A DNA stretch of 64,000 nt from Nocardioides aquaticus (GTDB lineage: Bacteria; Actinomycetota; Actinomycetes; Propionibacteriales; Nocardioidaceae), in assembly GCF_018459925.1 (NCBI RefSeq), contig NZ_CP075371.1, forward strand, positions 4,464,001 through 4,528,000, given 5' to 3'. Of the stretch, positions 39,629-43,346 are shown in pieces; position 1 is the first letter of the stretch, and the number at the start of each line of letters is the position of its first letter. The translations under genes and the position numbers were made by a program. The notes beneath the pieces were generated by a model that saw only the letters and a list, made by a program, of their open reading frames with translations, ran no database searches and was not told the DNA's origin.

Positions 39629-41455
39629 TCAGCCCGGCTCGGTCATCCGCTCCAGCCGCTGTCGCAGCAGGTCGCGCCGCCGGGCGTTGCCGGTCAGGTC
39701 GACGTAGCGCTCCCGGTACGCCGCGAGCAGCGCGTCGTCGAGCCGCCGGACCGCGCCCGGCGGAAAGCGGTAGCCGAGCCGCTCGTTCAGGTCGTCGAGG
39801 ACGCCGTCGCGCAGCACCTCGGCGAGCTCGTCGAACCGGGTGATCCCGAGCTCGAGCAGCAGCCCCGAGATCCACGCGTAGTGGTCGGTGCGCGACCAGC
39901 CGGCGTCGCCGTACTGCCCGGCGAGGAACGCTGCGAGCTCGCGGGGGTCCAACCGGGGGTCGTGCGGCTCGACCTCGACGACGCCGGCCCCGAGGGTGCC
40001 GCCCGTGCCGCCGGCGGTCCCGGCCGCGGGGTCCGCCGGCTGGGGCGCGGGGGTCCGCAACCGGTCGCGGATCGTCGAGAACTCCTGGTCGGCGAGCTCC
40101 AGCAGGCCGGCGGCCAGGGTGAAGCGACGGTCCAGGTCGCTGGCGTGCTCGGCGGGCACGCTGCCCTTGTAGCGGGCCTCGTGCTCGAACTCGGCCCACG
40201 CGTGCTGCAGGACCGTCCGCACCTGCACCTGGGCGACCAGCCCGCGCAGCTGCGCCCACTGCGGGTGGCTCTCCCGGGCCGCGTCCAGGCCGATCAGCAG
40301 GTGCCGGCTGGCGTAGCCGAACCGGCCCTCGCGCGCGGTGGCCAGGCCCATGTCGCGGTCGTCCTTCACGACGACCTGGTCGTCGAGCAGGTCGGCGACG
40401 GCGGCGACGTCGCCGCGGACGTAGGTGACGACGCGGACCCCGAGCTGGTCGGTGATGTCGTGCAGCGGCTCGGGGTAGGCAGCAGCCCCGCCTACCCGGC
40501 GCTCGGCCTTCTCGGCGAACGACGCCACGCTCTTGGTCCGTCCGGTGACCGAGAGGTAGTTGATCCCGGCCTCGTCGAGCACGGAGGTGACCAGCTCGAC
40601 GAACGCCTGGCCGGCCTCGACCAGGGCGGGGCGGCGCTGGGCGTACTCCTGCACCGCCGCGCGGACCGGGTCCTCGAGCCGCCAGGTCCGTCCGCCCGGC
40701 GACCCGGACCCCCCGGGTGCCCCGGCGGGGGCCGGCAGCCGCTCGGGAGGCAGCGCCGGGGTGACGATGGTGCCCGTCTCGAGGTCGCCGTAGGTCGTCG
40801 TCCGCGTCGGGTGGTGCTCGGCGAACCACGCGACGTAGGCGCAGAGGACCGCGTCGACCTGGTCCTCGACCACCCGCAGCTGGCTCTTGCGGGTGGCGGT
40901 CTCGACCTGGCCGCGCAGGGTCGTCCAGGCCTCGTCGACCGTGACGACGGTCTCGACGTGCCCGACGAGCAGGAGCAGCTCGCGGCGCAGCAGGTCCAGG
41001 TCGCGACCGGGCTTGGCCTTGTACTTCAACGTCTTCGCGAGCCCGAAGAGCGCCACGCTCGCGGCGTGGGGGTAGACCTCGATCGCCCGGCGCGCGCGGC
41101 GGCTGCGCGGGTTGACGTCGAGCCCCAGCCTCTTGGAGACCCGGGCCGCGCGGGTGCCGTCGGCGAACTCCGGCTTGCCGGTGTTGGCCGGGTGCGCGCC
41201 GGCCTCGAAGCGCCGGAAGTCGCGACCCAGCGCCTGCTCGGCCGGACGCGAGCCCGTCGGGTTGACGACCACGATCGGGGCGTCGATCCCGACCAGGCAC
41301 GGTCCCTCGACGTACGGCGCCAGCGCCTCGGCCACCTCGTCGTCGGTGCGCACCGTGCTGACGTGCAGCAGGCGCGCGTCGGCGTCGAGGACGGCCAGCC
41401 CCGTGGGGCTCTTCTCGCCCCAGGCCAGGTCGACGCCCACGAAGTGCACGTCCAC
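39629..41455 (-). CDS. relZ: DUF429 (RNase H-fold) fused to RelA/SpoT-type (p)ppGpp synthetase, RelZ-like
   Basis: 608 aa from GTG 41455. Residues 3-245 are a DUF429 nuclease-fold domain: Asp9 in GVDLAWG, Asp58 in IDAPIVV, Glu126 in IEVYPHA, Asp201 in EDQVDAVLCAY. A Gly/Ser/Pro linker follows. Residues 285-430 are a synthetase domain: GRTKSVASFAEKAERR, DITDQLGVRVV (Asp336), FGYASRHLLIGL, and VQVRTVLQHAWAEFEHEARYK. The C-terminal 170 residues are of unknown fold. The layout matches mycobacterial RelZ (RHII-RSD), which has RNase HII and alarmone-synthetase activities. The Glu of the usual E-x-Q-x-R-T motif is Gln409 here, so synthetase activity is uncertain. Only 38 nt separate it from psuG upstream. 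Confidence 0.82.
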   Translation of the reverse strand: MDVHFVGVDLAWGEKSPTGLAVLDADARLLHVSTVRTDDEVAEALAPYVEGPCLVGIDAPIVVVNPTGSRPAEQALGRDFRRFEAGAHPANTGKPEFADGTRAARVSKRLGLDVNPRSRRARRAIEVYPHAASVALFGLAKTLKYKAKPGRDLDLLRRELLLLVGHVETVVTVDEAWTTLRGQVETATRKSQLRVVEDQVDAVLCAYVAWFAEHHPTRTTTYGDLETGTIVTPALPPERLPAPAGAPGGSGSPGGRTWRLEDPVRAAVQEYAQRRPALVEAGQAFVELVTSVLDEAGINYLSVTGRTKSVASFAEKAERRVGGAAAYPEPLHDITDQLGVRVVTYVRGDVAAVADLLDDQVVVKDDRDMGLATAREGRFGYASRHLLIGLDAARESHPQWAQLRGLVAQVQVRTVLQHAWAEFEHEARYKGSVPAEHASDLDRRFTLAAGLLELADQEFSTIRDRLRTPAPQPADPAAGTAGGTGGTLGAGVVEVEPHDPRLDPRELAAFLAGQYGDAGWSRTDHYAWISGLLLELGITRFDELAEVLRDGVLDDLNERLGYRFPPGAVRRLDDALLAAYRERYVDLTGNARRRDLLRQRLERMTEPG

Positions 41456-41493: not shown

Positions 41494-42414
41494 CTAGCAG
41501 CCGGCGTACTCCCGGGCGATCGCCGCGCCGAGGCGGGCGTTGTGCCGCACCAGCGCGATGTTGGTGGTCAGGCTCGCGCCGTCGGTGAGCTCGACGATCC
41601 GGCCCAGCAGGTACGGCGTGACCTCCTTGCCGCGCAGGCCGCGGTCGTCGGCGTCGGCCAGGGCCCGGGCGATCACGCCGTCCATCTCCGCGGCCGGGAT
41701 CTCGTCGGCCACCGGCACCGGGTTGGCCACCACGACACCGCCGGCCAGGCCGAGGTCCCACTTCGCGCGCATCACCGCGGCGACCTCGGCGGCCCCGTCG
41801 ACGCGCATCGGGGCGCCGTGGCCGCTGCTGCGGGAGTAGAAGGAGGGGAACTCGTCGCTGCCCTCGACCAGGACCGGCACGCCCAGGGTCTCGAGCGCCT
41901 CGAGGGTCAGGCCGATGTCGAGGATGCTCTTGACCCCGGCCGAGACCACGGCGACGTCGGTGACGGCCAGCTCGGTGAGGTCGGCGGACAGGTCGAAGGT
42001 CTGCTGCGCCCCACGGTGGGCGCCGCCGAGGCCGCCGGTGACGAACGTGCGCACGCCCGCCAGCGCGGCCAGCCGCATCGTCGCGGCCACCGTCGTGGCC
42101 CCGTGCAGCCCGCGGGCCACGACGTACGGCAGGTCGCGGCGACTGACCTTGGTGACGCCGGGGTCGCTGGCCAGCAGCTCGAGGTCCTCGGGGGTCAGCC
42201 CCACCCGGGGCCGGCCGCCGAGCACCGCGACGGTGGCCGGGGTCGCGCCGGCGTCGCGGACGATGCCCTCCACCTCGACGGCCATCTCCACGTTGCGGGG
42301 GTACGGCATCCCGTGGCTGATGATCGTGCTCTCCAGCGCGACGACGGGCCGGCCCTCGGCCAGGGCTGCGGCCACCTCGTCGGACAGGGTCAGCATCGGG
42401 TGCGGGGTGCTCAC
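41494..42414 (-). CDS. psuG: Pseudouridine-5'-phosphate glycosidase
   Basis: 306 aa. Characteristic blocks: VVALESTIISHGMPYPRN, GGRPRVGLTPEDLELLA, RDLPYVVARGLHGATTVAATM, VFVTGGLGGAHRGA-type loop (here TFVTGGLGGAHRGAQQTFD), VVSAGVKSILDIGLTLE with the catalytic Lys, and GHGAPMRVDG. It cleaves pseudouridine 5'-phosphate to uracil and ribose 5-phosphate in the cytosol. GTG 42414 overlaps the psuK stop by 4 nt, so kinase and glycosidase are coupled. No permease for pseudouridine is adjacent. Confidence 0.95.
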   Translation of the reverse strand: MSTPHPMLTLSDEVAAALAEGRPVVALESTIISHGMPYPRNVEMAVEVEGIVRDAGATPATVAVLGGRPRVGLTPEDLELLASDPGVTKVSRRDLPYVVARGLHGATTVAATMRLAALAGVRTFVTGGLGGAHRGAQQTFDLSADLTELAVTDVAVVSAGVKSILDIGLTLEALETLGVPVLVEGSDEFPSFYSRSSGHGAPMRVDGAAEVAAVMRAKWDLGLAGGVVVANPVPVADEIPAAEMDGVIARALADADDRGLRGKEVTPYLLGRIVELTDGASLTTNIALVRHNARLGAAIAREYAGC

Positions 42415-43346
42415 AGCAGGCTCCTCACGAGGGCGTCGGACAGGTCGGGGCGCACGGTGTGGGGGCCGGCGACGGTCAGCGCGGCGGCGGCCTGGCCGTA
42501 CGCCGCGGCCTCCTCGGGCGCGGCGCCCGCGAGCAGGGCGTGGCAGTACGCCGCCAGCAGGGCGTCGCCGGCGCCGGTGGCGTCGACGACCTCGACGTCG
42601 ACCGACGCGTGGTGGGTCAGCCCGTCGGGCGTGCTGAGCAGGGACCCCTCCGGGCCCATCCGGACCCACACCTGCTCCACGCCCCGGGCGTGCAGGGAGG
42701 CCACCTGCTCCTCCAGGCCGGGCGGGTCGGGGTCGTCCTCGGGGACACTCAGCGCCGCCAGCTCGGCGATGTTCGGGGTGACGGTCCGCACGGGCCACCG
42801 GTCGAGCACCGGCGCGAGCACGCGCGCCTTCGGGACGCTGACCGGCTCCAGCACCACGGCGGTCCCGTGCCGCGCGGCGAGCCCCAGCGCCGCGTCGACC
42901 GCGGCCGCGGTCAGGTTCCCGTCGACGACGACCAGCGCGGCACCGGCCACCGCCGTCTCCGCCGCCGCCACGTCCGCGGGCCCGAGCAGCTCGGTGGCGC
43001 GCATGTCGGAGACCGCCACCACAAGCTCGCCGTCGCTGTCGACCACCGCGGTGTAGCTGCCGGTGGCGGCACCCACCCGGCGCACCAGGTCGACATCCAC
43101 CCCGGCCGCCCGGGTCTGCTCCAGCAGGCGGGCGCCGCCGTCGTCCTGGCCCACGGCGGCGACCAGGCGGACGGGCGTGCCGAGGCGGGCGAGGTTCTCC
43201 GCCACGTTGCGGCCCACGCCGCCGGGGGTGCGCACCACGCGGCCCGGGTTGCTCGTGCCGGCCACCGCCCGGGTGGTGCTGCGGGCCAGCACGTCGAGGT
43301 TGGCGCCACCGAAAACCACTACGCCGCGACGGTCCACCTGCGTCAC
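42411..43346 (-). CDS. psuK: Pseudouridine kinase (PfkB family)
   Basis: 311 aa ribokinase-like protein. Marks: GGANLDVLARS at the start, GGVGRNVAENLARLG (sugar binding), TPNIAELAAL, and the PfkB anion hole/catalytic base DATGAGDALLAAY near residue 255. Linkage to psuG defines the substrate as pseudouridine, phosphorylated at the 5' position. GTG 43346 start. The upstream gap of 90 nt to the divergent ABC transporter contains both promoters; I see no strong operator. Confidence 0.92.
   Translation of the reverse strand: MTQVDRRGVVVFGGANLDVLARSTTRAVAGTSNPGRVVRTPGGVGRNVAENLARLGTPVRLVAAVGQDDGGARLLEQTRAAGVDVDLVRRVGAATGSYTAVVDSDGELVVAVSDMRATELLGPADVAAAETAVAGAALVVVDGNLTAAAVDAALGLAARHGTAVVLEPVSVPKARVLAPVLDRWPVRTVTPNIAELAALSVPEDDPDPPGLEEQVASLHARGVEQVWVRMGPEGSLLSTPDGLTHHASVDVEVVDATGAGDALLAAYCHALLAGAAPEEAAAYGQAAAALTVAGPHTVRPDLSDALVRSLL

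What the first reader, a model, noticed from the sequence alone, without database searches (positions are those of the whole stretch)
39629..41455. RelZ-like RNase H-fold/(p)ppGpp synthetase fusion with the motif Glu changed to Gln
The gene joins a DUF429 nuclease-fold domain to a RelA/SpoT synthetase domain, the layout of mycobacterial RelZ. In the synthetase the otherwise near-invariant E-x-Q-x-R-T motif reads AQVQVRT (Gln409), while the Asp336, G-Y-x-S-x-H and G-R-T-K-S motifs are intact. In Rel enzymes that Glu helps coordinate magnesium. The protein may be a nuclease with a nucleotide-sensing, low-activity or altered synthetase.
Basis: partly seen in the sequence, partly recalled or inferred. 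Interest (0 to 1): 0.72.

Follow-up and report, generated by a model that had tools for sequence, protein, structure and literature searches.

The report
Alarmone-synthetase family missing its catalytic glutamate
A soil bacterium's gene joins a nuclease-like domain to an enzyme domain that makes bacterial stress signals, and it, like nearly all relatives sampled, lacks an acidic residue thought to hold the enzyme's magnesium ion, which may explain a reported magnesium-independent relative.

Summary
The minus-strand gene at 39629-41455 encodes DUF429 + RelA_SpoT + a C-terminal helical region, with Gln409 where small alarmone synthetases have the Mg-binding Glu.

It is not a peculiarity of this gene. 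Of 346 two-domain fusions retrieved with one Nocardioides and two mycobacterial queries (capped lists), none has Glu or Asp there (Ser 243, Gln 97, Ala 4, Thr 2). M. gilvum, M. tusciae and an M. vanbaalenii isolate, species listed as RelZ-type orthologues, carry Ser. The other residues I take as catalytic are invariant in all 346. The synthetase domain is under purifying selection (median dN/dS 0.07, 40 pairs). Glu persists in Streptomyces-like relatives and in five fusions of the window's own genus.

RelZ of M. smegmatis is reported to make pGpp, ppGpp and pppGpp (PMC7591505), with Mg-independent activity (cited in PMC5566576). The likeliest reading is a working, slow synthetase with a one-carboxylate metal site, not a dead domain.

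New here is the family-wide loss and its possible link to magnesium independence. No activity was measured.

The parts
39629..41455 (-). relZ-type gene: DUF429 + RelA/SpoT synthetase fusion, 608 aa from GTG 41455 (or 606 aa from GTG 41449)
40814..41437 (-). DUF429, RNase H-like fold (residues 7-214); invariant acids D9, D38, D58, E73, E126, E197, D198, D201
   Evidence: Pfam PF04250; 346 of 346; RuvC-like by structure comparison
40163..40543 (-). RelA_SpoT (p)ppGpp synthetase domain (residues 305-431)
40229..40231 (-). Gln409 (CAG) at the column of the Mg-ligand Glu (RelP E174, RelSeq E323)
40448..40450 (-). Asp336, the retained Mg-ligand Asp (taken as the counterpart of RelP D107)
   Evidence: 346 of 346
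40358..40360 (-). Asp366, invariant in the Glu-less sequences, His in 17 of 17 Streptomyces-like Glu-bearing actRel
39638..39961 (-). C-terminal helical region (about residues 499-606), also present in Streptomyces-like actRel; no Pfam match

Best explanation
The gene is a RelZ-type actRel small alarmone synthetase. An N-terminal DUF429 domain, which has an RNase H fold and is probably a nuclease acting on RNA:DNA or branched nucleic acid, is joined to a synthetase that moves pyrophosphate from ATP to the 3'-OH of a guanine nucleotide. In this family the second Mg-binding carboxylate was replaced by Ser, Gln, Ala or Thr. The enzyme most likely still works, using Asp336, Lys308 and Lys316, with the metal bound mainly by Asp and the ATP phosphates. 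I expect it to be slow and less dependent on Mg, and it probably shares the GMP preference reported for M. smegmatis RelZ. Shown here: the domains, the missing Glu across the sampled family, the invariance of the remaining residues, and purifying selection. Inferred: catalysis, metal behaviour and nuclease activity of this protein.
For: The domains and fold match RelQ/RelP. In one search, 346 of 346 fusions lack Glu/Asp at 409, while R306, K308, K316, D336, R341, Y381, S383, H385, R413, W420, E424, H425 and K430 are 346 of 346. Median dN/dS of the synthetase part is 0.074, against 0.104 for DUF429 and 0.107 for the C-terminal part (40 of 341 pairs). RelZ of M. smegmatis is reported active, GMP > GDP > GTP (PMC7591505 section 10), and Mg-independent (statement in PMC5566576 citing Murdeshwar and Chatterji 2012). 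Ser is found in all three other mycobacterial species that PMC7591505 lists as dual-domain orthologues: M. gilvum PYR-GCK P0230, M. tusciae P0284 and M. vanbaalenii, here isolate BC8_1, L089. In RelP the Glu reaches Mg through two water molecules (PMC7983052), so a neutral polar residue could be tolerated.
Against: No activity was measured. No sequence identifiable as M. smegmatis RelZ was found, so its Ser is inferred from relatives. In B. subtilis, changing this Glu is used to kill SAS enzymes (recalled, no call; one search found no held paper). Ser, Gln, Ala and Thr interchange, which could also mean the position is simply free. The Mg-independence report is second-hand.
Confidence: 0.62

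Rival explanations
1. Pseudo-synthetase: the domain binds ATP and guanine nucleotides or alarmone but no longer transfers pyrophosphate, and serves as a sensor controlling the DUF429 nuclease.
For: The Glu is lost in 346 of 346. The substitutes are chemically mixed, as expected of a position freed from catalysis. M. smegmatis RelZ domains are reported to be non-functional when expressed apart (PMC7591505 section 10).
Against: Lys308, Lys316 and Asp336, taken as the counterparts of RelP residues that serve ATP phosphate and metal (PMC7983052), are invariant. M. smegmatis RelZ is reported to be an active synthetase, and inactivating one domain did not affect the other. Twenty same-family loci matched only over the Glu-less synthetase half at that place (L164-L183, 18 S and 2 Q), so a nuclease in the same chain is not always there to be controlled.
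Confidence: 0.2
2. Compensated active site: an acidic residue elsewhere, for example Asp366 of the DxRD stretch, has taken over the metal-binding role, so the mechanism is ordinary.
For: Asp366 is 181 of 181 in Glu-less sequences but His in 17 of 17 Streptomyces-like Glu-bearing ones.
Against: The Glu-bearing sister fusions also have Asp at this place (L034, L236-L239: GDRDKG), so it predates or is independent of the loss. It lies on another strand (362-368) than Gln409 (408-414). No coordinates could be measured.
Confidence: 0.1
3. Anti-phage effector: the DUF429 nuclease and the synthetase act together in defence.
For: DUF429 of this protein matches the PADLOC candidate-defence model PDC-S44 at 1.4e-78, and the synthetase matches PDC-S33 weakly at 2.6e-6.
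Against: Those are candidate models only. The immediate neighbours look metabolic (PfkB kinase, Indigoidine_A-like protein, F420-type oxidoreductase), and 119 of 215 genomes of the window's genus have a near full-length match, more like a widespread accessory enzyme. The wider window was not searched for defence genes.
Confidence: 0.08

Closest known systems
RelZ / MS_RHII-RSD of Mycobacterium smegmatis (actRel subgroup with DUF429)
   Same: Same domain order and family. Many mycobacterial relatives bear the NCBI name 'bifunctional ribonuclease/(p)ppGpp synthase'. Fusions in mycobacteria and Marmoricola were already described (passages of PMC3153485, and PMC5566576).
   Different: Gln rather than the mycobacterial Ser at 409; about 51-56% identity to mycobacterial members; untested biochemically.
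RelQ / RelP small alarmone synthetases (B. subtilis YjbM and YwaC, S. aureus RelP)
   Different: They have the Mg-ligand Glu and no DUF429.
RelS of Corynebacterium glutamicum (actRel without nuclease domain)
   Same: Placed in the actRel subgroup; uses GTP and GDP (PMC5566576 passages), and a C. glutamicum SAS can use GMP too (PMC10112252 passage).
   Different: No RNase domain. It is said to contain all conserved synthetase motifs with slight deviations from ExQIRT (PMC5566576 section 11); its sequence was not read here.
RuvC / MOC1 resolvases
   Different: Sequence identity about 8-20%; shared fold only, no shown resolvase activity.

Membership tests
RelZ-type actRel (DUF429 + RelA_SpoT) | N-terminal DUF429 fused to a RelA_SpoT domain | tested here: met
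RelZ-type actRel (DUF429 + RelA_SpoT) | Groups with mycobacterial RelZ-type fusions rather than with RelP/RelQ-like or other SAS | tested here: met
   trees; identity about 51-56% to mycobacterial fusions
RelZ-type actRel (DUF429 + RelA_SpoT) | (pp)pGpp synthesis with GMP preferred | not testable with these tools
   reported for M. smegmatis (PMC7591505 section 10)
RelZ-type actRel (DUF429 + RelA_SpoT) | RNA:DNA hybrid hydrolysis; hexamer | not testable with these tools
   reported for M. smegmatis (PMC7591505 section 10); candidate DUF429 acids conserved
Canonical RSH/SAS synthetase | Glu of the Syn4 motif ExQxRT (Mg ligand) | tested here: not met
   Gln409; absent in 346 of 346 fusions
Canonical RSH/SAS synthetase | Asp Mg ligand, Lys pair, GYxSxH | tested here: met
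   D336, K308, K316, G380-Y381-S383-H385
RuvC-type resolvase | RNase H fold with RuvC-like acidic residues | tested here: inconclusive
   fold match; D9, E73, D198, D201 invariant; the correspondence to RuvC catalytic residues is recalled, not measured
PADLOC candidate defence PDC-S44 | Match to the model | tested here: met
   E 1.4e-78 over residues 3-238; the model is a candidate only

The most novel reading that the evidence does not exclude
RelZ enzymes are a natural class of alarmone synthetases that have given up the second metal carboxylate and transfer pyrophosphate with a one-Asp or near metal-free site. This would underlie the reported Mg-independence and perhaps the GMP preference. 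Five fusions of the window's own genus that keep Glu give a ready natural comparison.
Probability: 0.35. Interest if true: 0.72.

Novelty: new variant of a known kind. Interest (0 to 1): 0.52.

Why it matters
The catalytic Glu is treated as part of the diagnostic motif of an active (p)ppGpp synthetase. If a whole characterised family works without it, motif-based calls of 'inactive' alarmone synthetases are unsafe, and the odd reported metal behaviour of RelZ gets a structural cause that can be tested with natural protein pairs. If the family is inactive instead, the reported RelZ activity needs another look. Either result is informative.

Tried and rejected
Chance or sequencing error: rejected, because the change is family-wide. 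Alignment slip: rejected; there is no gap between column 409 and Q411-R413-T414 (345, 346 and 346 of 346), and no acidic residue holds a fixed place just before it in the contexts. A single clean loss: (119 sequences thinned at 85% identity) gave a monophyletic Glu-less clade (98 tips, support 0.96). With four more Glu-bearing fusions added those group with L039 (Ser): support 0.52 in the FastTree, UFBoot 92 in a 36-sequence IQ-TREE. So two losses, or one loss and one regain, are also possible. Decay of the domain: not supported (dS may be saturated in this GC-rich set). Conserved operon: the kinase and Indigoidine_A-like genes lie near relZ in only 7 of the 150 loci scanned, though many of those loci have short flanks. 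Metal-site geometry: no model coordinates were available, so distances were not measured.

Finding M. smegmatis RelZ: three protein searches with capped lists, one named genome scan limited to 80 loci, genus searches of 297 and 396 partly overlapping genomes and a relatives search of 148 did not yield a sequence that I could identify as M. smegmatis. Two genomes with MspA 98-99% identical to the recalled sequence (G657, G925) both carry Ser. Literature: searches listed no paper whose title or shown abstract reports the missing Glu, and no passage I read does. I read section 10 of PMC7591505, section 11 of PMC5566576, and otherwise passages only (those two, PMC3153485, PMC4429107, PMC3985635, PMC4300193, PMC10112252, PMC8622095, PMC7983052, PMC6793942, PMC10434055). 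The primary RelZ papers (Murdeshwar 2012, Krishnan 2016, Petchiappan 2020) were not read. Structure comparison: no RNase HII appears among the 50 entries listed, which excludes nothing.

Full report

THE COLUMN. Gln409 stands where B. subtilis RelQ and S. pneumoniae GTP pyrophosphokinase have the Glu of EIQIRT. In S. aureus RelP this Glu (E174) and an Asp (D107) complete the Mg shell, and the Glu acts through two water molecules (PMC7983052, passages). I take Asp336 as the counterpart of D107. The lists behind the counts are each limited to the best 120 hits of one query. P0002-P0121 from the window protein (P0002 is the window protein itself): Q 97, S 18, A 3, T 2 of 120. P0122-P0241 from M. 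brisbanense: S 119, A 1 of 120. P0242-P0347, the newly listed proteins from the M. moriokaense query: S 105 and one not matched by the pattern, of 106 (that one is P0299). Aligned together without P0002: S 243, Q 97, A 4, T 2 of 346, no E or D. Eighty named genome loci found with L036, whose best hit L064 (M. rhodesiae) is identical: S 51, Q 25, A 4. Thirty same-order loci L005-L034, L005 being the window's own: Q 23, S 5, A 1, E 1. Twenty same-family loci matched only over the synthetase half at that place (L164-L183): S 18, Q 2. Fifteen further mycobacterial loci L214-L228: all S.

WHERE GLU REMAINS. Sixteen loci of an unnamed genus of 7.4-9.7 Mb genomes (taken to be Streptomyces, not verified) all have Glu (L144-L154, L159-L163), as does L233. 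Where both halves were found in those genomes, synthetase and DUF429 lie at separate loci. Eighteen other SAS-like sequences all have Glu. Five fusions of the window's own genus keep Glu (L034, L236-L239). Of the other six loci newly fetched in that search, L240-L245, all have Gln; the remaining matches of its 119 genomes were not read. In the final set of 227 synthetase sequences: S 123, Q 59, A 5, E 40 (L003, L005 and L229 dropped as duplicates).

IS THE DOMAIN ALIVE? R306, K308, K316, D336, R341, Y381, S383, H385, R413, W420, E424, H425 and K430 are 346 of 346. Which of these are catalytic rests partly on PMC7983052 (the RelP Lys pair and Asp) and partly on recalled RSH literature. Median dN/dS for 40 of 341 pairs at 85-97% identity is 0.074 in the synthetase, 0.104 in DUF429 and 0.107 in the C-terminal part. 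A dead domain would not be expected to keep all this while losing one carboxylate.

HISTORY. With column 409 masked, a first tree put all Glu-less sequences in one clade (98 tips, support 0.96) with the Glu-bearing fusion L034 as sister. Adding L236-L239 moved the Glu-bearing fusions next to L039 (Ser): support 0.52 in the larger FastTree, UFBoot 92 in a 36-sequence IQ-TREE. So the loss happened once with one regain, or twice. Glu-bearing fusions exist, so fusion and loss are separate events.

LINK TO FUNCTION. PMC7591505 (section 10 read) states that M. smegmatis RelZ hydrolyses RNA:DNA hybrids and R-loops and makes pGpp, ppGpp and pppGpp with GMP > GDP > GTP. It names M. vanbaalenii, M. tusciae and M. 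gilvum as dual-domain orthologues. Here all three species carry Ser: P0230 is M. gilvum PYR-GCK, P0284 is M. tusciae, and L089 is M. vanbaalenii isolate BC8_1, not necessarily the same strain. PMC5566576 (section 11 and passages) states, citing Murdeshwar and Chatterji 2012, that the M. smegmatis enzyme has Mg-independent pyrophosphokinase activity and calls its mechanism apparently divergent. Loss of a Mg-ligand Glu across the family is a simple candidate cause. That link is my inference; none of the passages I read makes it. The M. smegmatis sequence itself was not read. Two genomes near it by MspA (98-99%) carry Ser.

A SECOND SIGNATURE. Asp366 is invariant in Glu-less sequences (181 of 181; 346 of 346) and is His in 17 of 17 Streptomyces-like ones. 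The Glu-bearing fusions also have it, so it is not a simple replacement. It sits before the guanine-binding GY stretch, at the position of the RXKD/EXDD motif of long Rel enzymes (placement recalled), and might bear on the GMP preference. This is an idea only.

VERDICT. Observation right; the gene-specific interpretation is too narrow. The gene is a member of the known RelZ kind, and the family is a variant of alarmone synthetase lacking a residue held to be essential.

Noticed in passing
window 41494-43346 (-): Immediately upstream of relZ on the same strand lie an Indigoidine_A-like gene (the pseudouridine-phosphate glycosidase family, recalled) and a PfkB kinase whose best NCBIfam hit is pseudouridine kinase, below its cut-off. 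The pair lies near relZ in 7 of 150 scanned loci (L115, L136, L137, L142, L143, L231, L232; many loci have short flanks).
   Followed up: partly
window 40814-41437: The best-listed solved structures for the DUF429 domain are RuvC and MOC1 Holliday-junction resolvases. Invariant D198-x-x-D201 recalls the RuvC C-terminal acid pair (recalled).
   Followed up: partly
window 40742-41449: DUF429 matches PADLOC candidate defence model PDC-S44 at 1.4e-78.
   Followed up: no
L034, L236, L237, L238, L239: A small group in the window's own genus has the same fusion but keeps the Glu, with ARAK instead of GRTK read in L034; a natural control for activity tests.
   Followed up: partly
G871:C4:3867-6444 and G725:C202:12259-14818: In two genomes of the mycobacterial genus a separate DUF429 match lies directly beside the full-length relZ fusion, as a tandem.
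   Followed up: no
L004 (G000:C1:1437393-1437719): The same genome has a further divergent RelA_SpoT protein in a 527-codon frame with Glu in the motif, of no group recognised here.
   Followed up: no
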